DNA of 64,000 nucleotides, taken from contig NZ_LZDS01000002.1 in NCBI RefSeq assembly GCF_001678755.1, forward strand, positions 35,812-99,811, read 5' to 3'. The stretch comes from Acinetobacter gandensis (lineage in GTDB: Bacteria; Pseudomonadota; Gammaproteobacteria; Pseudomonadales; Moraxellaceae). This document shows positions 49,933 to 59,445 of this stretch, in pieces. Position 1 is the stretch's first letter. Each line of letters opens with the position of its first letter. The notes below the pieces were generated by a model. It was not told the DNA's origin, did no database searches, and saw only the letters and a list, made by a program, of their open reading frames with translations. The position numbers were made by a program, and so were the translations under genes.

Positions 49933-49968
49933 CTTTGTCTGATGTTTGAGAATTTTTAGGTGAATTAT

Positions 49969-51324
49969 ATGCAAAACCGAACCACGATCGCAGCAATTGC
50001 CACCCCTCCAGGTCGTGGTGGTGTCGGAGTGATTCGCCTATCTGGTCCGAAGTCTTATGCGATTGCTGAGGCACTGACGCAGCAACCATTACCTAAAGCA
50101 CGTTATGCAGGCTTTCGAAAGTTTAATGACGCATCAGGCGAAATTATGGATGAAGGTTTGGTGCTTTGCTTCCCGAATCCACATTCATTTACGGGTGAGG
50201 ATGTGGTGGAATTGCAAGGCCATGGCGGCCCTGTGATTCAGAATGCGCTGTTAGCACGCTTGCTTGAATTAGGTGCAATTGCTGCCAAAGCGGGTGAGTT
50301 TTCCATGCGCGCTTTCGAAAATGGCAAGATGGATTTGGTGCAAGCTGAAGCAATTGCAGACTTAATTGATGCAACATCTCAAGCCGCTGCACGTTCTGCG
50401 GTGCGTTCACTACAGGGGGCATTTTCTACCAAGGTGAATGCAGTACTTGAGCAACTGATTCATTTACGTCTACATGTAGAAGCTGCGATTGATTTTCCTG
50501 AAGAAGAAATCGACTTTTTGGCAGATGGTAAGATTTTGAACCTACTTGATGGTGTCGCAAACGCTGTCACTCAAGTACAACAATCTGCGCGTCAAGGTCA
50601 GTTATTACGTGAAGGTTTACAGGTGGTGATTGCAGGAAAGCCCAACGCCGGTAAATCATCACTGTTAAATGCTTTGGCGGGTATTGATCGTGCCATTGTA
50701 ACGGATATTGCGGGTACTACACGCGATGTACTGCATGAGAAAATTAGCTTAAATGGTTTACCTATTACTCTGACAGATACCGCAGGCTTACGTGAAACAG
50801 GCGATGTGGTGGAAAAAGAAGGGATACGTCGCGCCATTCAAGAAATTGAACAAGCTGACCTGTTACTTTTGGTCTATGACTTAAGCCAAGGTGAAGATCC
50901 TCTGCAATTGGCGCAGGCATATTTTGCTGATCACATCGAACCAAAACGCTTAATGCTTATTGGAAACAAATGTGATTTAACAGGTTCACAAGCTGAAATC
51001 ACCGATTTCCAAGGTTTTCGTCATATCACTGTCTCAGCGAAACAAGAAACCGGTGTTCAGGCGCTCATAGATGCGATTACAGCGCATGCTGGCTTCCAAC
51101 CAGAAGAAGATACCTTTATTGCGCGTACACGCCATTTAGACGCAATGAAGCGCACTCAGCTATATCTTGCTGAAGCACGTGAACAATTGGTGGTATATAA
51201 CGCAGGTGAATTGGTCGCGGAGTCTTTGCGTTTAGCACAGAATGCGCTTGGCGAAATTACCGGTGATTTTAGCGCAGATGATTTGTTGGGTAAGATTTTT
51301 GGATCATTCTGTATTGGAAAGTAA
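49969..51324 (+). CDS. mnmE: tRNA U34 modification GTPase MnmE
   Basis: About 451 residues from ATG 49969 (MQNRTTIAAIATPPGRGGVGVIRLSG); a GTG three codons upstream is also open. N-terminal folate-binding domain, helical domain, inserted Ras-like G domain (GKPNAGKSSLLNAL, DTAGLRET, NKCD), and the C-terminal CIGK whose Cys is needed for the reaction. With MnmG it makes 5-carboxymethylaminomethyl-U34 in tRNAs. The final 18 bases double as the integration site of the element to its right. Confidence 0.96.
   Translation: MQNRTTIAAIATPPGRGGVGVIRLSGPKSYAIAEALTQQPLPKARYAGFRKFNDASGEIMDEGLVLCFPNPHSFTGEDVVELQGHGGPVIQNALLARLLELGAIAAKAGEFSMRAFENGKMDLVQAEAIADLIDATSQAAARSAVRSLQGAFSTKVNAVLEQLIHLRLHVEAAIDFPEEEIDFLADGKILNLLDGVANAVTQVQQSARQGQLLREGLQVVIAGKPNAGKSSLLNALAGIDRAIVTDIAGTTRDVLHEKISLNGLPITLTDTAGLRETGDVVEKEGIRRAIQEIEQADLLLLVYDLSQGEDPLQLAQAYFADHIEPKRLMLIGNKCDLTGSQAEITDFQGFRHITVSAKQETGVQALIDAITAHAGFQPEEDTFIARTRHLDAMKRTQLYLAEAREQLVVYNAGELVAESLRLAQNALGEITGDFSADDLLGKIFGSFCIGK
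51307..51324 (+). other. attL: Attachment site at the 3' end of mnmE (left junction of the island)
   Basis: TTCTGTATTGGAAAGTAA ends at the mnmE stop. It agrees with the 18-base core I recall for SGI1-type islands (TTCTGTATTGGKAAGTAA), which insert at the 3' end of trmE/mnmE. The integrase gene starts 205 bases later. The partner copy (attR) is not in the window. Confidence 0.75.
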
Positions 51325-51528: not shown

Positions 51529-52764
51529 ATGGCACAAGCAAAAAAGATACTTTTTTCTACTGACAGAGAAATTAAAAGTCTCAAAGCCGGTGAAAAGAGA
51601 TATACAGCTAAGGATGCATTAGCGAATGGCTTGTTCCTGGATATAACAACGACTGGTGTTAAGTCGTGGTGGTATCGTTACTCTTTAAATGGAAAACAGG
51701 AAAGACTGGTTATAGGTCGTTATCCAGATTTGTCATTGAAAGATGCTAGGCAGGTTCGAGATGAGTCTGCATCATTGGTGGCCAAAGGTATTTCACCAAA
51801 GCAGAAGAAAAATAAAGTCAGCAGTACCTTATTTAGTGACTACGGTGAACGCTATCTAAATGAGGTCATCAAAAAAGACCGTAAAGACCCTTACAACATG
51901 ATTTTATGTCTGAACAATGACATTTACCCAATAATGGGCCACATCCCTTTAGATCAAATCAGCATTGAAGATGTACGCCGTACAATATGGCGTAAAAAAG
52001 AACAGGGATATGATGCAGCAGCTAACCAAGTCAGAGGCTTGTTAAAGCGCATGTTTGATTATGCAATGACTTTGGGCCTTGTACCCTATAACCCTGTTTT
52101 GGCTATCCCATCACGGCACGTACACAAAGCTAAGCCTAGAGATAGATATTTAAATACAAATGAAATCCGTACTTATTACACCACCCTCTTAAATTCAAGA
52201 ATCTACCGGCCTAGAAAGCTGGGCCTTTTGCTGTCATTACTGACGTTGGTTAGGAAGTCAGAGTTATTAAGAGCCAAGTGGGAACATGTGGACTTTGATA
52301 GTCGTATGTGGCTTATTCCAGAAACAAAGGCAGATAGCATGACAGGCCATAGCCGTGAAATGGTCGTCTATATGTCAGACCAAGTTATAGAGCTATTTAA
52401 GGAATTAAAAACGATTGCTGGTGATGAGCCTTATGTTTTTGTAGGTAGGAAGTCAGGTACACATATTAGCCACAACGCTTTTAATACGGCGCAAAAGGCA
52501 GCATTGGCTTTAACAGATATACCCGACTTCACCGTTCACGATTTGCGCCGTACAGCAAGCACCCATTTAAATGAGCAAGGTTTTAATAGTGATGCAATCG
52601 AGGCTTGTTTAAACCATACGGCGAAAGGTGTTAGAGGCGTATATAACAAAGCAAAATATGAGAAGGAACGTATAGAGATGATGCAAAAGTGGAGTAATTT
52701 TATTTTTGATGTGATTTATGAGCCGAACGTAATATTTTTTAACCAAAATAGAAAGATTGGCTGA
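51529..52764 (+). CDS. int: Tyrosine-type integrase of the P4 family
   Basis: 411 residues. An N-terminal arm-type DNA-binding domain (AP2/DUF4102 type, KAGEKRYTAKDALANGLFLDI ... SLKDARQVRDESASLVAKG), a core-binding domain and a catalytic domain with VRKSELLRAKWEHVD (first Arg), HDLRRTASTHL (His about 337, second Arg) and a Tyr near residue 371 in VYNKAKYEKER. All catalytic residues are present. Likely carries out integration into the mnmE 3' end. Upstream GTGACT repeats may be its arm sites. Confidence 0.9.
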   Translation: MAQAKKILFSTDREIKSLKAGEKRYTAKDALANGLFLDITTTGVKSWWYRYSLNGKQERLVIGRYPDLSLKDARQVRDESASLVAKGISPKQKKNKVSSTLFSDYGERYLNEVIKKDRKDPYNMILCLNNDIYPIMGHIPLDQISIEDVRRTIWRKKEQGYDAAANQVRGLLKRMFDYAMTLGLVPYNPVLAIPSRHVHKAKPRDRYLNTNEIRTYYTTLLNSRIYRPRKLGLLLSLLTLVRKSELLRAKWEHVDFDSRMWLIPETKADSMTGHSREMVVYMSDQVIELFKELKTIAGDEPYVFVGRKSGTHISHNAFNTAQKAALALTDIPDFTVHDLRRTASTHLNEQGFNSDAIEACLNHTAKGVRGVYNKAKYEKERIEMMQKWSNFIFDVIYEPNVIFFNQNRKIG

Positions 52765-53319: not shown

Positions 53320-53550
53320 ATGACATCATCTAATAAAAATATAGTTCAGCGTTTAATTCGCCGTAAAGAGGTCCAGGAAAAGACCGGTTTAGGCGTGTCC
53401 TCAATTTATGCTTTGATGAAAGAAGGGCTTTTCCCTAAATGCATTAATCTTTCTGAGCGCCGGGTGGCCTGGGTTGAGTCCGAGGTGGATGAGTGGGTAT
53501 CTGAGCGTATTGCTTGTCATAGAGATAACAACAAGAAAGAAGGTATCTAA
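53320..53550 (+). CDS. alpA: AlpA-family DNA-binding regulator
   Basis: 76 residues. An excisionase/AlpA-like helix-turn-helix: IRRKEVQEKTGLGVSSIYALMKEGLFPKCINLSERRVAWVESEVDEWVSERI. In coliphage-related elements AlpA turns on integrase or excision genes. It begins a tight gene series (53320-56407), where the later genes overlap by four to eight bases. The ATG has no strong Shine-Dalgarno but is the only good start. Confidence 0.85.
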   Translation: MTSSNKNIVQRLIRRKEVQEKTGLGVSSIYALMKEGLFPKCINLSERRVAWVESEVDEWVSERIACHRDNNKKEGI

Positions 53551-53552
53551 CC

Positions 53553-53762
53553 ATGAGTACAGATACCTTAATTCTAAATTATTTAAAACAGGGTAATTCA
53601 ATTACTCAATTTGAAGCGATAGAGCTATTTCGCTGTTATCGCTTGAGTGCTGTTATTCATCGGCTTCGTGGTGCTGGATATCAAATTAAATCACATCGGC
53701 AACCTAATACGAATGGCGGTGGGGCTTTTTCCAGATATGAGCTAGATGAGGTGCTTGTATGA
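53553..53762 (+). CDS. Small winged-helix-type DNA-binding protein
   Basis: 69 residues, two bases after alpA. ITQFEAIELFRCYRLSAVIHRLRGAGYQIKSHRQ is a helix-turn-helix of the type seen in small proteins of phage and island replication modules. Ends with RYELDEV. Overlaps the next gene by four bases (ATGA). The partner DNA is unknown. Confidence 0.7.
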   Translation: MSTDTLILNYLKQGNSITQFEAIELFRCYRLSAVIHRLRGAGYQIKSHRQPNTNGGGAFSRYELDEVLV

Positions 53763-53986
53763 AGGGCATTTCTATAAACACATTTAAGACATGTTTAGTC
53801 GTGGGTATAACCTTTTTTATTGCTGTTTGCTGTGGGCGTTCAGCTTATGGGGAAGTTGTATTTATGAATATGGCCATCCCTACTACATTTCGTTTTTACA
53901 GCGTTCAGAAAATAGCTGTACCTACGGTGTGTCCTATTAACACTTGTTTTTCAAAACTTAATTGTTCTGGGGAAAATAATGTCTAA
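53759..53986 (+). CDS. Hypothetical small protein with one membrane segment
   Basis: 75 residues. Hydrophobic segment FKTCLVVGITFFIAVCCG (about residues 9-26) followed by a 45-residue tail with three Cys (VCPINTCF, NCS). It could be a signal peptide or membrane anchor. Overlaps the preceding gene by 4 bases and the next by 8, which supports that it is translated. No known family. Confidence 0.45.
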   Translation: MKGISINTFKTCLVVGITFFIAVCCGRSAYGEVVFMNMAIPTTFRFYSVQKIAVPTVCPINTCFSKLNCSGENNV

Positions 53987-54284
53987 TCAAAGCAATTCTA
54001 TGCAAGATATTTTAGTCAAAGTTTATAGTGTTAAAGATATGCATGATTTGGCATCGTTGGCTGAGTGCGATATGCAATGGATGAATACAGCGATAGAGCA
54101 TGTAAAAAAAGAACTTAAAAAACTATTGGATGAATGCGTAGTTCCAGGCCATCAATTGTCAGAGTTAATGACCCATTTAGATATGTATGAGTACATAGCA
54201 TTAAGCCGTTTAGGCCATTATTCGGATAAAGCTATGGAATATGGAGCAGAAACAGACGCAAATAAAAAGGCAGAATCATTGTGA
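53979..54284 (+). CDS. Hypothetical helical protein
   Basis: 101 residues, mostly predicted helix (MQWMNTAIEHVKKELKKLLDE), no recognised domain, no membrane segment. Overlaps the upstream gene by 8 bases and the downstream one by 4, so it is part of the DUF3987 operon. Function unknown. Confidence 0.55.
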   Translation: MSNQSNSMQDILVKVYSVKDMHDLASLAECDMQWMNTAIEHVKKELKKLLDECVVPGHQLSELMTHLDMYEYIALSRLGHYSDKAMEYGAETDANKKAESL

Positions 54285-56407
54285 GTGAAACTGCCTTAAA
54301 GGAACCAAATAATCCTACAGAGATATTAGAGCATTGTTTATCTTTAAATCCTAGTGATGGAGAATATTCGAAGCATCCTATTATTCAGCGTTTTGGCAGT
54401 CCATTACAGCCGATCTATGTTGACCAATGCAATGTAGACATTGACGGCATTGAGTACGATAGTCCTTTGATTCTGCCTATTTATAACGGCCAATTAGAGC
54501 TTGTTCAATGTGCTGTATTACAAGATAAACAGCGTGTATCTGTCACCCCTGATGGTTTAGCTAATGGCTTTGCAAAGTATGGGGATTTTGACCCAGCTAA
54601 GCCTGTCATTATTACTTATGGCCTGGAAGCATTCTTTAAAGTGGCTCAGGCAGGTTACGCCGTGGCTTTGGTGCTATTGCCTAACCTATGCAGTAAACAT
54701 CAAACAGAACTTAAGCCGTTTGATTTCGAGCAAATCCAGTTTGTGATTAATCAGCTATCACAGGTGGGTTATAAGCAACTTTACTTACCTGTCAGACCTG
54801 AACATATCCAGCTTGAAGCCTTCCAAAGCCTTGAGAAAAATACGGCAGTTCGATTGCTGAATCAGCATATCGTGATTGATGAGCAAGGGGGTAAAAGTGA
54901 GTGTCTGATCGAGCTGTATAAAGAAGATGCCTCGGAAGAAGTTGCCATTTTCTTGGATGAATCTATTAAGCGTTTACCAACTCTTAACCAATGGGCGGAA
55001 TTGTTGCCATTAGCACCAATGGAAACATTACCAAATACACCTTATCCAATTCATGCCCTACCACCACTGGCAAGAGAGGCAGTTATTGCTATTGCTGAGC
55101 ATGTACAAGCCCCTATTGCAATGTCTGCTCAATGTGTCATTGGTGCAATGTCCCATATTGCCCAAGTCCATGTAAATGCACCACATCCATTTAATACTCA
55201 AGGTGAACCATGCAGCCTGTATTTGTTGACCGAAGGGCAAAGCGGAAGTCGTAAAAGTACAAGCCGAAATATGGCAGATAAAGCCATTATTCAGTATGAA
55301 CGTAAACAGTATGAGCAATACCGCCGTGACCTTGAACAATGGAAAAGTGGCCAGGCGTCATTAAATAAAAAGGAGCGTGAAGCATATTGCGCTGAAAATC
55401 CCCCACCCCATGACCCAAGTACGCTTTACAGTGATATTACCCTTGAATCTATTACCGGGCTGTATGTGGATGGTGTACTCAATAATGCCTCCATCTCTAG
55501 TGATGAAGCTGGTCAATTTTTTGGTGGTTACACCATGAAAGGTGACACACGTACCCAGGCCATTGGTGGATATGCCAAGTTATTTGATGATGGTTTTGTG
55601 GAGCGTACTCGGTCTAAGTCTAATTTAAATGGTAGTGGTCGAGCTTATGATGTGCGATTAACCTTTAATCTTCAGGGGCAGCATGAAGTTTTAGCTGATG
55701 CGCTCAAGGACCCAGTACTAAGAGGACAAGGCTTTTTACCGAGATTCATTTTAACCATTCCTGAAAACTTGGCTGGAACACGTCTGCAAGATGCTATTTA
55801 CCGATCTAAGAATGCCGATCATGACCATAGATTGATTGCCTACTGGACACGGTGCGAATATTTGCTTGATGACTGCCCAAGACCACAAGGAGAGCAAGAA
55901 CTTCACAATGGGCGCTACGTCATTCCTATGAATGATGAAGCAAGGGAAATAGATGCTTCGTTCTACAACATGTTTGAGGAACTACAAGGCAAAGGTAAAC
56001 GCTATGAATACCTACAGGCGTTTGCCAGTCGCGCTAGTCAATTAGCACGGCGTTTGGCTACTGTATTCGCTTATTTTGAGGGTTTACAGTGGATTGATGC
56101 CAAGACATTAACAGGAGCTTGTGAGGTCATCAAGCACTCACTGAATGAATGGGCCATGTATGCAGATATTGAGGTTAAAACTGAAAGTGATGCAGAAAAG
56201 TTGAGTAAATGGCTTATTCGGAAATGTGTGGAGTTAAAGACAAGCCGTATTTCTAAAACGCTTGCTATGAAAGGTGCGCCATCACATCTAAGAAAGGCAA
56301 AAGCATTTAACCCATGCTTAAATGAATTAATTGAATTTAATCATGCTCGATTAGTAACTATCAGTAAAGCCGCATACATTGAACTCAACCCTTTATTGCT
56401 AGAATAA
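54281..56407 (+). CDS. DUF3987-type protein with P-loop; probable replication protein
   Basis: 708 residues. The N-terminal ~200 residues look like a degenerate primase/TOPRIM-type region (CNVDIDGIEYDSPLILPIYNGQLELVQCAVLQDKQ, then a VIITYGLEAFFKVAQAGYAVALV segment). A central DUF3987 part follows, with a P-loop at about 318-327 (EGQSGSRKST) and DEAGQFFGGYTMKGDTRTQ, FDDGFVERTRS. Such proteins occur beside integrases and AlpA in islands and satellites, where they are believed to act in replication initiation. The gene immediately precedes a repeat-rich region with iterons that could be its origin. Confidence 0.75.
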   Translation: MSETALKEPNNPTEILEHCLSLNPSDGEYSKHPIIQRFGSPLQPIYVDQCNVDIDGIEYDSPLILPIYNGQLELVQCAVLQDKQRVSVTPDGLANGFAKYGDFDPAKPVIITYGLEAFFKVAQAGYAVALVLLPNLCSKHQTELKPFDFEQIQFVINQLSQVGYKQLYLPVRPEHIQLEAFQSLEKNTAVRLLNQHIVIDEQGGKSECLIELYKEDASEEVAIFLDESIKRLPTLNQWAELLPLAPMETLPNTPYPIHALPPLAREAVIAIAEHVQAPIAMSAQCVIGAMSHIAQVHVNAPHPFNTQGEPCSLYLLTEGQSGSRKSTSRNMADKAIIQYERKQYEQYRRDLEQWKSGQASLNKKEREAYCAENPPPHDPSTLYSDITLESITGLYVDGVLNNASISSDEAGQFFGGYTMKGDTRTQAIGGYAKLFDDGFVERTRSKSNLNGSGRAYDVRLTFNLQGQHEVLADALKDPVLRGQGFLPRFILTIPENLAGTRLQDAIYRSKNADHDHRLIAYWTRCEYLLDDCPRPQGEQELHNGRYVIPMNDEAREIDASFYNMFEELQGKGKRYEYLQAFASRASQLARRLATVFAYFEGLQWIDAKTLTGACEVIKHSLNEWAMYADIEVKTESDAEKLSKWLIRKCVELKTSRISKTLAMKGAPSHLRKAKAFNPCLNELIEFNHARLVTISKAAYIELNPLLLE

Positions 56408-56499
56408 CTGCGTTTTTGCGATTTTAGCGTATATCCCTTGCTATAGAAGGGTTTAAGAATCACAAAGGCTTGCGATAGTGCTGCGATTGGTTGCGATTC
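56404..56499. repeat. Left ~95 bp inverted repeat with TGCGAT iterons
   Basis: Nearly matches, in inverse orientation, 57834-57931. The best-kept part is the 20-base TATCCCTTGCTATAGAAGGG at 56432-56451 (partner 57883-57902). TGCGAT iterons at 56417, 56471, 56482 and 56492, the last three at 10-11 base spacing. Confidence 0.85.
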
Positions 56500-56693
56500 C
56501 TTTGTGATTGATACAAGGAATCGCAAAATTGCAAACTATGGGGTATGGCGTTGCGATACTAAAAACCTTGATACATAAGGGCTATAAGAGAAAAACGCAA
56601 AGTCGCAAGGTTTCTAGGTAAATACCTAAAATTAAATTACAAAAAAGGCGAATTCTAAACATAATTATTCCCATATTTTGGGAGGGGATGGAT

Positions 56694-56969
56694 GTAAAAA
56701 AGATACTGGCCTGGCCTAATTATGGAGATTCATTTTTAGTAATTATTCATTCCGTTCATAGTGCCAAATTTATGTTTTTTTACAAAAATATGAAATGCCG
56801 CTTATTGAAGAAGTTAAGATAAAATTATTATTAATTTCAAGAATATATTTGGATTTTTAGAGTGTAAAAAAGGCGTAATTAAACCCGGAAAGCGGCATAC
56901 CGGTTTTCCCGAAAGGTCTGGTTGAAAAAGTCGCCTATAAAAATATAAATATAGTCGTATAGCTGAGTT
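56694..56969. repeat. Direct repeat DR1 (~275 bp)
   Basis: Shares long, clearly aligned blocks with 57314-57594: AGATACTGGCCTGGCCTAAT, the CATTCCGTTCATAGTGCCAA block, and the GGCATACCGG and TCGCCTATAAAAATATAAA blocks. A long-range ATGCCGCTT / AAGCGGCAT pairing is possible within DR1. In DR2 it is shortened to ATGCCG / CGGCAT. Confidence 0.85.
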
Positions 56970-57029
56970 TTCATACTGCATTTTAATGAGATAATTTGAA
57001 ATAAATCAGATTTACTATTTATAAAAATG

Positions 57030-57190
57030 TAATGTGCAAAACACATGTTTTGAGAGGCGTAAAAAAGCACCTCTCATCGGGGTGAAGCCCGATTATGAAG
57101 TGCCTTTTATATTTTTACTTAGCCATAAATGGTCAAGTAAAAAAGACGGCTCAAGATCGGGGGAAAGCCCGACTTGGTAGAGCCATTTAT
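57030..57190 (+). ncRNA. Candidate structured RNA: string of hairpins with two related ones
   Basis: Hairpins at 57032-57046 (ATGTG / CACAT), 57051-57076 (TGAGAGG / CCTCTCA), 57067-57103 (A), 57112-57143 (TTTTTACTT...AAGTAAAAA with inner CCAT / ATGG) and 57148-57184 (B). A and B have the same apical pattern, ATCGGGG(N2)AAGCCCGA, over different outer stems (GCAC / GTGC versus GGCTC / GAGCC). The layout invites comparison with C4-like antisense RNAs of phage P1/P4 immunity. Strand and ends are not proven. Confidence 0.45.
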
Positions 57191-57313
57191 TAAAAAAGAT
57201 AACTATAATTTTATAGGTTGTCAACTTGAAGCATGACCTATTGGGAATGGATATTCTGAGAGAGGTAAGTCAATGCCAAACATAAATAATGAAATATTCC
57301 GTACTTGTTGGCT

Positions 57314-57594
57314 GTAGAAAATAGATACTGGCCTGGCCTAATTATAGAGATTCATTTTTAGTGATTACTCATTCCGTTCATAGTGCCAAATTTATGCTAT
57401 TTTTTACAAAAATATGAAATGCCGCTTATTGAGGTGAAAAATTAAAAAAATAATTTATTACAATAGGATATGAGGTTTTTAGAGTGTAAAAAAAGCGTCA
57501 TTAAACGCAAAAATCGGCATACCGGATTTTACCGAAAGCATCCTTGAAAAGTCGCCTATAAAAATATAAACATAGTCTTATAACTTAGTTTTTT
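57314..57594. repeat. Direct repeat DR2 (~275 bp)
   Basis: Second copy of DR1, same orientation, about 620 bases on. Differences are scattered, so the duplication is old. The part corresponding to the CCGG hairpin of DR1 changed while the flanks did not. Confidence 0.85.
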
Positions 57595-57595
57595 T

Positions 57596-57642
57596 ACTCA
57601 TTTACTCATTTACTCATTTACTCATTTACTCATTTACTCATT
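57596..57642. repeat. 8-base tandem repeat (ACTCATTT)x6
   Basis: ACTCA at 57596, 57604, 57612, 57620, 57628 and 57636, exactly 8 bases apart. Copy number is likely to vary between strains. Confidence 0.9.
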
Positions 57643-57689
57643 ATGGAATTGAGGCAATCAGAGTGAATAAATTATAATTTATTTTAAAT

Positions 57690-57778
57690 GTTGCCTTTGT
57701 TGCCCAGGCCCCAAAAAGGAGGCAACAGTCTGGAACTCAGTTATATCAAGTATGTTGCCTGTGTTGCCCTTGTTGCCT
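57690..57778. repeat. GTTGCC repeat cluster
   Basis: Five GTTGCC and one GGCAAC within about 90 bases. No gene. Possibly protein-binding iterons. Confidence 0.6.
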
Positions 57779-57833
57779 CTAAAAAATAGATAATCTGAGA
57801 GGGTTTAATAGACTTAAACCAATACAAATGCAT

Positions 57834-57931
57834 GAATCGCAACTAATCGCAGCGTTATCGCAAGCCGTTTGTGATTATAAGGCCCTTCTATAGCAAGGGA
57901 TACAGGATAAAATCGCAGAATCGCAGCTATT
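57834..57931. repeat. Right ~95 bp inverted repeat with ATCGCA iterons
   Basis: Inverted partner of 56404-56499. ATCGCA at 57836, 57846, 57857, 57912 and 57920 (complement of TGCGAT). Confidence 0.85.
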
Positions 57932-58128
57932 TCAAAGGGAATTGAAAAAATTAAATGAAAACCATAACTATGAATGTAATAGGTCTGGCATTAAAAAATA
58001 TTTACTTAACAAATGGATGGATTGCGTACCAGAAAATACAAAGATACTAAGAGCAATGAAAAGGCTGTGATAGAGATTAGGATAAATATTAACTAATTGA
58101 TATTAAAGGTTTTAAAATAGTTTTCATT

Positions 58129-58243
58129 TTTGACATTTTCTTTGACATTTTCTTTGACATTTTCTTTGACATTTTTATTAGAAAAAATTGACTAAATCTA
58201 TGATATACAATATTAATATATTGACATTACCTTTGACATTTTT
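58129..58243. repeat. 12-base tandem repeats TTTGACATTTTC upstream of fic
   Basis: Four contiguous copies at 58129-58176 (the last ends in T) and two more spread at 58220-58243. Each contains a TTGACATT sequence resembling a -35 hexamer. Probable operator array for the Fic gene or its neighbour. Confidence 0.8.
58188..58216 (+). promoter_or_regulatory. Candidate promoter of the Fic gene
   Basis: TTGACT (58188-58193), 17 bases, TATTAA (58211-58216), 39 bases before the ATG. It is embedded in the TTGACATT repeat array, so a repressor that binds the repeats would block it. Confidence 0.4.
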
Positions 58244-58254
58244 CCTGACAAAAT

Positions 58255-59445
58255 ATGCCTGAACATAGTAAAACGTGGATAGATGATACGACTTTAAGAG
58301 TAATGACATATAAGTCAGGCTCTTTTACTTTTCAATTAGGTCTAGATCTTAAGCAGATTCAGGCAATGCTTGATCGTGTTAACGATTCACAAAAACGTTT
58401 TAATAAGACCCCTAGCCTTCCTTTAATTATTGATCAAGTTCAAGATAAAGTATTGGCTAGTAGTATTTATAGTACGAACACGATTGAAGGTGGACAGTTC
58501 ACAGAACAAGAAACAGCGAATATCCTAAAACAAGACCCTAAAACTATTCAAAAATCAGAAGAAAGACGACTTACTAATTTAAAAGAATCAATTGAATGGA
58601 TAAAAAAATTTAGTTCAAAAAAATTACTGCCGGTGAACGGTAAAATTTTTGAACTCTCTACTATGTTTCAATTACATACACTTGTATCTCAGAATCTTGC
58701 AGAACAGCACAATCCTGCAGGGCAACTGAGAAATAATCAGCCTACTCAAAAGACTATTGTAGGTAATGATGTACATGGTGGGACATATAGACCACCAAAA
58801 TGTATCGAAGATATTGAATACCTTATTCAAGCTTGGGCAGAGTGGTTGAATAACCCTGCCATCATTAATCAGCCTTCAATTGTTAGGGCATGCTTGGCTC
58901 ACTATTACTTTGAATTGATTCATCCGTTTTGGGATGGCAATGGACGTACTGGGCGTCTAATTGAAATGTTTATTCTTGAACAATCCGGTTATAGATTTAG
59001 CTCATCTGCTATTTGGAAATATTACCAGACCAATATTCATGAATATTTTGCTCTCTTCAATCAATGTAGAAAACAAGCCGAAAAGAAAGTAGACAACCCT
59101 AACCAGCTTTTTGTCGAGTTTGTACTTAATGGGATGTTTGAAACAATTGAATATCTGCATGATGAAAGTAATAGATTGATTAGCTTCTTGCTTTATCAAA
59201 CAGCATTGAATCAAGCTAAGTTCAGTAAACACATTTCAGATCGTCAATTCAATTTGATTCATAATTTGATGAGAGCGATTGGAGAAAATGACAAGCATTT
59301 TTCTAAGGCTGATATATATCGTATGCCCCAAATTCAGGCTTTATATAACGGAAAAGTTGAGAGAACTTTTTATAGAGATATAGATAAGCTGATTACCCTA
59401 GAGTTTTTGTCTGAGCAAGATGGATTAATCTTTATAGGTGAGTAA
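58255..59445 (+). CDS. Fic-domain protein, class II type
   Basis: 396 residues. Fic motif HPFWDGNGRTGR at about 223-234 with catalytic His; an inhibitory motif of class II type, TNTIEG at about 74-79, in the N-terminal helix. The C-terminal ~80 residues look like a winged helix (KADIYRMPQIQALY...TFYRDIDKLITLEFLSEQDG). Fic enzymes usually transfer AMP from ATP to target hydroxyl groups; the inhibition helix normally holds them off. No antitoxin gene is adjacent. Cytoplasmic. Repeats upstream suggest tight control. Confidence 0.85.
   Translation: MPEHSKTWIDDTTLRVMTYKSGSFTFQLGLDLKQIQAMLDRVNDSQKRFNKTPSLPLIIDQVQDKVLASSIYSTNTIEGGQFTEQETANILKQDPKTIQKSEERRLTNLKESIEWIKKFSSKKLLPVNGKIFELSTMFQLHTLVSQNLAEQHNPAGQLRNNQPTQKTIVGNDVHGGTYRPPKCIEDIEYLIQAWAEWLNNPAIINQPSIVRACLAHYYFELIHPFWDGNGRTGRLIEMFILEQSGYRFSSSAIWKYYQTNIHEYFALFNQCRKQAEKKVDNPNQLFVEFVLNGMFETIEYLHDESNRLISFLLYQTALNQAKFSKHISDRQFNLIHNLMRAIGENDKHFSKADIYRMPQIQALYNGKVERTFYRDIDKLITLEFLSEQDGLIFIGE

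What the first reader, a model, noticed from the sequence alone, without database searches (positions are those of the whole stretch)
57030..57190. Hairpin string with two related GC-rich hairpins: candidate immunity-type antisense RNA
Two hairpins share the apical ATCGGGG..AAGCCCGA but differ in outer stem, and a third, symmetric hairpin sits between. The element otherwise resembles P4-type satellites. In P1/P4 phages, C4-type RNAs silence replication or antirepressor genes. A new two-member C4-like system is possible. I could not find the complementary target by eye.
Basis: inference. Interest (0 to 1): 0.8.

Follow-up and report, generated by a model that had tools for sequence, protein, structure and literature searches.

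The report
Orphan twin RNA hairpins, not C4
An island in an Acinetobacter genome carries a string of three predicted hairpins, two of them alike, that likely makes one or two short RNAs which would act as regulators; the string does not match the known C4 immunity RNA, which many related islands carry in another place and which was not found in this island.

Summary
The hairpins are real: three stems within 57061-57186, two sharing ATCGGG..CCCGA, folding better than all 200 shuffles on either strand. They read best on the minus strand, where both related hairpins are followed by six U and the first lies just below a TTGACA-17-TATCTT promoter-like site. They are not C4: no Rfam family matches at E<=5, and a C4 model from related islands gives 4.3-4.6 bits there, against 97-103 bits for C4 of such islands. 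C4 lies elsewhere in relatives: 17 of 29 loci carry it upstream of the replication-type operon, with loops complementary to their own leader. This island keeps a related small gene at that place, but no C4 was found. The hairpins sit in an insert between the likely origin and the cargo, found in none of 174 other genus genomes. One loop matches the ribosome-binding site of that gene over 7 nt (4 of 239 starts reach this), but energy tests do not support it. Small-RNA locus is my first reading; a plain terminator pair is close behind.

The parts
57146..57186 (-). Hairpin 1 (outer stem GGCTC/GAGCC, loop CUUUCC)
   Evidence: fold -17.6 kcal/mol, z -4.0; sequence
57139..57144 (-). Run of six U after hairpin 1
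   Evidence: sequence
57112..57143 (-). Symmetric middle hairpin; it would take up the U run of hairpin 1 in a longer transcript
   Evidence: fold z -3.2, 2 of 200 shuffles as good
57064..57106 (-). Hairpin 2 (loop CUUCAC), related to hairpin 1 in its apical half
   Evidence: fold -21.6 kcal/mol, z -5.2
57061..57066 (-). Run of six U after hairpin 2
   Evidence: sequence
57196..57224 (-). Promoter-like site TTGACA-17-TATCTT, 10 of 12 matches, 9 nt before hairpin 1
   Evidence: 8 sites found in the region, 8.5 expected; chance of one this good in a given 20-nt slot of this strand about 0.008
56651..56977 (.). Direct repeat copy A beside the hairpins, role unknown
   Evidence: alignment
57272..57598 (.). 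Direct repeat copy B
   Evidence: alignment
56403..56637 (+). Origin-like region with GCGAT-type repeats, shared with related islands; its role as origin is inferred
   Evidence: 76-78% identity to L003 and L004
57834..57931 (-). Inverted copy of the left arm of the origin-like region
53969..53975 (+). GGGGAAA in the ribosome-binding site of the small gene; exact complement of UUUCCCC in hairpin 1; possible target, weakly supported
   Evidence: against:
53979..54284 (+). Small gene at the place where related islands have their C4-preceded small gene
   Evidence: blastp to the small gene of L009: 36%, E 1e-21; 5 of 16 such genes at E<1e-3
53763..53978 (+). Leader where related islands carry C4; none found here

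Best explanation
The string consists of two related predicted hairpins, each followed by six U on the minus strand, and a third between them, in an insert found in none of the other genomes searched, and it likely is a small-RNA locus whose C-rich loops would pair with ribosome-binding sites, possibly that of the first gene of the island's replication-type operon. Shown by calls or sequence: the inverted repeats and their fold energies, the shared apical halves, the U runs, the place of the promoter-like site, the lack of a C4 match in the hairpins and in the leader, and the lack of relatives. Inferred, untested: transcription from about 57188, a short RNA ending after hairpin 1 and a longer one of about 130 nt ending after hairpin 2. 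Weakly inferred: pairing of UUUCCCC in hairpin 1 with GGGGAAA before the gene at 53979. I put a small RNA at about 0.4 and this particular target at about 0.15.
For: Fold z -7.1 on the minus strand with minimum-energy and centroid structures identical. Six U after both related hairpins. TTGACA-17-TATCTT 9 nt before hairpin 1; chance for that slot about 0.008. No open reading frame of 60 aa or more on the minus strand between 57220 and 58254 that would need a terminator. UUUCCCC is complementary to the ribosome-binding site at 53969-53975: 1 of 48 starts in the window reaches 7 nt, 4 of 239 with 12 more stretches of the same genome; shuffled loops reach it in 81 of 20000.
Against: No RNA data. 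Promoter-like sites in the region as a whole are no more than expected (8 against 8.5), and the terminator scan there lists neither hairpin. No relatives, so no covariation test is possible. Target: predicted net gain only -1.6 kcal/mol, less than at the start at 54281 (-5.1); whole-RNA duplex energy ranks 53979 at 173 of 285 for hairpin 1 and 268 of 285 for hairpin 2; loop duplex energy ranks 11 of 239 for hairpin 1 and 57 of 239 for hairpin 2. The promoter-like sequence before hairpin 2 is poor and not listed by the scan.
Confidence: 0.38

Rival explanations
1. The hairpins are ordinary intrinsic terminators, a duplicated pair that separates the replication-type module from the cargo, with no regulatory RNA.
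For: Strong stems with U runs on the minus strand; hairpin 2 is also followed by a U-rich stretch on the plus strand, downstream of the DUF3987 gene. Hairpins with U runs occur after the DUF3987 gene in 17 of 23 related loci scanned, of unrelated sequence by eye. A terminator-like AAGCCCGAT/ATCGGGCTT stem occurs elsewhere in the same genome.
Against: No minus-strand gene to terminate; a promoter-like site lies right before hairpin 1; stems have internal loops and bulges.
Confidence: 0.35
2. The string acts as DNA: single-strand hairpins used in replication next to the origin-like region.
For: It lies between the origin-like region and an inverted copy of its left arm, next to a remnant of a single-strand-binding protein gene.
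Against: Related islands with the origin-like region lack the insert; U runs and promoter-like site fit RNA better.
Confidence: 0.12
3. The plus strand is used: the hairpins form a leader that controls a short reading frame at 57273.
For: Frame MPNINNEIFRTCWL with a purine-rich site before it; plus-strand ACCTCTC at 57069 is complementary to GAGAGGT at 57260.
Against: Only 14 codons; the plus-strand centroid and minimum-energy folds disagree; 7-nt matches are common in this stretch (11 pairs of 7 or more).
Confidence: 0.06
4. A true, diverged C4 antisense RNA.
For: The sub-threshold alignments of the C4 model place both hairpins on the C4 outer stem.
Against: 4.3-4.6 bits; both inner arms missing; nothing in Rfam at E<=5; opposite strand and different place from C4 in relatives.
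Confidence: 0.02

Closest known systems
C4 antisense RNA (Rfam RF01695; Group 1 sRNAs of A. baumannii, PMC5320573)
   Same: Short structured RNA of P4/P1-type elements; supposed to cover a ribosome-binding site.
   Different: No match; single hairpins instead of three stems; minus strand, downstream of the DUF3987 gene instead of in the leader.
Intrinsic (Rho-independent) terminators
   Same: G+C-rich hairpin followed by U run on the minus strand.
   Different: Two in tandem with related apical halves, internal loops, own promoter-like site, no gene to terminate.
STAXI motif (Rfam RF01728)
   Same: Tandem structured repeats near integrase and single-strand-binding protein genes, at times near C4 (PMC2864571, passages).
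   Different: No match on this contig even at E<=10; the 4 hits in the genome are below the cut-off and on other contigs.

Membership tests
C4 antisense RNA (RF01695) | match to the covariance model | tested here: not met
   No Rfam match at E<=5 in 56400-58260; family-specific model 4.3-4.6 bits
C4 antisense RNA (RF01695) | outer stem with two inner hairpins | tested here: not met
   Each unit folds as one hairpin
C4 antisense RNA (RF01695) | two loops complementary to the leader of a nearby gene | tested here: inconclusive
   One loop matches the 53979 ribosome-binding site over 7 nt, the other has 4 nt; energies unsupportive
C4 antisense RNA (RF01695) | processing by RNase P at the outer stem | not testable with these tools
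   needs RNA
Intrinsic terminator | G+C-rich stem followed by U run | tested here: inconclusive
   Sequence and folds fit for both on the minus strand; one search lists hairpin 2 only, neither
Intrinsic terminator | transcription ends there | not testable with these tools
   needs RNA
STAXI motif (RF01728) | match to the covariance model | tested here: not met
P4-type integrative island (the setting) | tyrosine integrase, AlpA regulator, replication-type gene | tested here: met
   Phage_integrase, Phage_AlpA and DUF3987 over their cut-offs; the replication role of DUF3987 is inferred
P4-type integrative island (the setting) | use of a helper phage's capsid | not tested
   the contig ends inside the island

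The most novel reading that the evidence does not exclude
The island has lost the C4 immunity RNA that its relatives carry and has replaced it, from unrelated sequence, by a pair of minimal minus-strand hairpin RNAs, one of whose loops closes the ribosome-binding site of the same gene: a non-homologous replacement of a phage-type RNA immunity switch.
Probability: 0.12. Interest if true: 0.65.

Novelty: new member of a known kind. Interest (0 to 1): 0.35.

Why it matters
It shows that a plausible C4 call made from hairpins alone was misplaced, and it leads to where C4 lies in these islands. In 17 related loci the C4 loops are complementary to their own leader far better than to leaders of other islands, and among 18 distinct C4 RNAs taken from all over the genus, 15 have their best downstream match at the ribosome-binding site of the next gene. 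The passages I read of the 2016 A. baumannii RNA paper (PMC5320573) leave the targets of these abundant RNAs open, so that question becomes directly testable. If this island really swapped C4 for other hairpin RNAs, it would be a natural experiment in replacing an RNA immunity switch.

Tried and rejected
Rejected: C4 membership; STAXI; REP-type genome-wide repeats (the hairpin model finds only these two copies in the own genome); a conserved reading frame in the two direct repeats (short frames in both copies, none alike by eye); structured RNA in the direct repeats (z -0.5 for each copy; a model of them finds only the own genome among 175).

Led nowhere: weak DNA matches of the insert in 14 other genus genomes are short A+T-rich or microsatellite matches. 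The hairpin model gave one further hit, E 0.006, among 390 genomes of the order, as chance would give. In a relaxed plasmid search only matches at E about 7 appeared in the 20 of 42 rows shown. Whole-RNA duplex energies against 285 start candidates did not favour the proposed target; they ignore the cost of opening the hairpins.

Not done: other strains of this species could not be searched (one genome per species). The two C4 RNAs elsewhere in this genome (C27) could act on this island in trans; my script's motif did not find them in their loci, so this was not tested. Supplements of papers were not read.

Full report
Setting. The window is C2:35812-99811 of a genome of genus Acinetobacter. 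The genus follows from G122, 'same genus', whose contig C1 has the length of NZ_SJNT01000001.1, Acinetobacter sp. ANC 4910. Next to a gene that I recognise from memory as mnmE (49960-51324) lies an island: integrase 51529-52764, AlpA 53320-53550, a winged-helix protein 53553-53762, a small gene 53979-54284, a DUF3987 gene 54281-56407, 1.85 kb without genes of 100 aa or more, a Fic protein 58255-59445 and a type ISP restriction enzyme from 59636. The window ends with the contig, so the island is incomplete.

The two related hairpins and the symmetric one between them are present, and the stretch folds better than all 200 shuffles on both strands. The shared apical pattern occurs twice in 64 kb and never in 100 shuffles. 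The cleaner reading is the minus strand: three hairpins side by side, minimum-energy and centroid structures identical, z -7.1; both related hairpins are followed by six U; TTGACA-17-TATCTT ends 9 nt before the first. On the plus strand the two related hairpins pair with each other in the best fold. Cautions: promoter-like sites in the whole region are as many as expected (8 against 8.5), and that tool's terminator scan lists neither hairpin, only a stem in direct repeat B; my own scan lists hairpin 2 only. The chance of a promoter-like site this good in the given 20-nt slot of that strand is about 0.008, from 2000 random sequences.

It is not C4. Rfam gives nothing at E<=5 for 56400-58260. 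I aligned 14 C4 RNAs from related islands (6 of 29 pairs have double changes) and built a model. It scores 100-103 bits on three further loci (L022, L029, L031) and 97-103 bits on five named loci, of which L032, L033 and L036 are the same places as the training sequences L003, L004 and L008, and L040 the same as L029. It gives 29 bits for L065, one of two C4 RNAs of another type elsewhere in this genome, and does not list the other, L064, at E<=0.01. On the two hairpins it gives 4.6 and 4.3 bits, at most 6.1 anywhere in 56600-57850.

Where C4 lies in relatives. Relatives of the DUF3987 protein occur in 50 of 175 genus genomes, this one included. Of 29 related loci held (L003-L031), 17 carry C4: 14 of 20 and 3 of the other 9. 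L015 and L018 begin inside the gene, and some other flanks may be too short to include it. Over all 17, loop a' matches the own downstream leader over 7.71 nt on average against 5.32 for leaders of other islands and 5.29 for reversed loops; loop b' 6.94 against 4.21 and 4.53. Upstream the values are 7.35 against 5.05 (a') and 6.76 against 4.37 (b'); L024 has no upstream sequence and counts as 0; L004, L007, L022 and L024 reach only 5-6 nt for a' downstream. This is the arrangement that I know from memory as seqA/seqB/seqC of phage P4.

The window lacks it. The leader gives no C4 at E<=5 in Rfam, 3.2 bits at the homologous place and at most 6.9 anywhere in 53500-54100, and no such complementarity, while L005 as a positive control shows it. 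The small gene at 53979 resembles that of L009 (36%, E 1e-21) and of L005, L014, L012 and L007, 5 of 16 small genes at E<1e-3; the others are unrelated. So this island most likely lost C4 (inferred).

The hairpins are private. The 171-base stretch matches only the own genome among 175, as do a tolerant pattern and a model of the two hairpins; 390 genomes of the order gave one chance-level extra hit. Plasmids and phages gave none at E<=1e-5, viral contigs none with the strict pattern. In relatives the part after the origin-like region runs on into other cargo or a single-strand-binding protein gene (five named loci with full gene ends, L032-L036, and L011 read by eye). Here an insert of about 1.2 kb (56640-57833) lies between that region and an inverted copy of its left arm, followed by a remnant of the single-strand-binding protein gene at 58015-58080. 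It holds two direct repeats of about 330 bp around the hairpins, found in no other of 175 genomes by model.

Mechanism. I favour a minus-strand small-RNA locus, by a small margin. UUUCCCC in and beside the loop of hairpin 1 is the exact complement of GGGGAAA before the gene at 53979. It is the only one of 48 starts in the window to reach 7 nt; with 12 more stretches of this genome, 4 of 239 do, this one included. Shuffled loops reach it in 81 of 20000. Against: predicted net gain -1.6 kcal/mol, less than at the start at 54281 (-5.1); rank 173 of 285 by whole-RNA duplex energy and 11 of 239 by loop duplex energy; hairpin 2 has only 4 nt. Two hairpins were tried, so the hint is weak. A plain terminator pair is nearly as likely.

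Literature. PMC5320573: passages read, including most of the abstract; it describes 21 C4-related Group 1 RNAs in AB5075 and leaves targets open in what I read. PMC2864571: passages read. Other papers were seen as listings only. No search named this hairpin string, so I make no claim about print beyond these calls.

A wider result in passing. C4 reaches the cut-off in 144 of 173 genus genomes. For the 30 loci returned there (18 distinct C4 sequences; L222 is the same place as L025) the inner loops match their own downstream leader over 8.44 nt against 6.27 for swapped leaders, and upstream 9.28 against 7.47. In 15 of 18 the best downstream match lies at the ribosome-binding site of the next gene (L219 and L225 reach only its first G; misses L216, L230, L231) (sites judged by eye).

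Noticed in passing
L003-L014, L022-L026, L029, L031 (17 loci): C4 RNA upstream of a small gene before the DUF3987 gene; both loops are complementary to the own leader upstream and downstream, much better than to leaders of other islands: likely action on the own operon as in phage P4.
   Followed up: yes
L204-L233: In 15 of 18 distinct Acinetobacter C4 RNAs the best downstream match of the inner loops lies at the ribosome-binding site of the next gene; C4 occurs in 144 of 173 genus genomes.
   Followed up: partly
window 56403-56637 and 57834-57931: Origin-like region with GCGAT-type repeats, and an inverted second copy of its left arm 1.3 kb on; possibly two origins or a composite island.
   Followed up: partly
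window 58015-58080: Remnant of the 3' part of a single-strand-binding protein gene that L011 carries at the same place.
   Followed up: partly
window 56651-56977 and 57272-57598: Two direct repeats of about 330 bp with unknown role; in copy A the minus strand has ATGCCGCTT and, 95 nt on, its complement AAGCGGCAT.
   Followed up: partly
window 57599-57640 and 58130-58181: Microsatellites (ACTCATTT units; TTGACATTTTCT units) before the Fic gene.
   Followed up: no
window 57255-57317: Plus-strand frame MPNINNEIFRTCWL with a purine-rich site, like the start of the C4-preceded small genes (MPNxNN).
   Followed up: partly
own genome C27:207666-207747 and C27:67081-67160 (L064, L065): Two C4 RNAs over the Rfam cut-off elsewhere in this genome; whether they could act on this island was not tested.
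   Followed up: no
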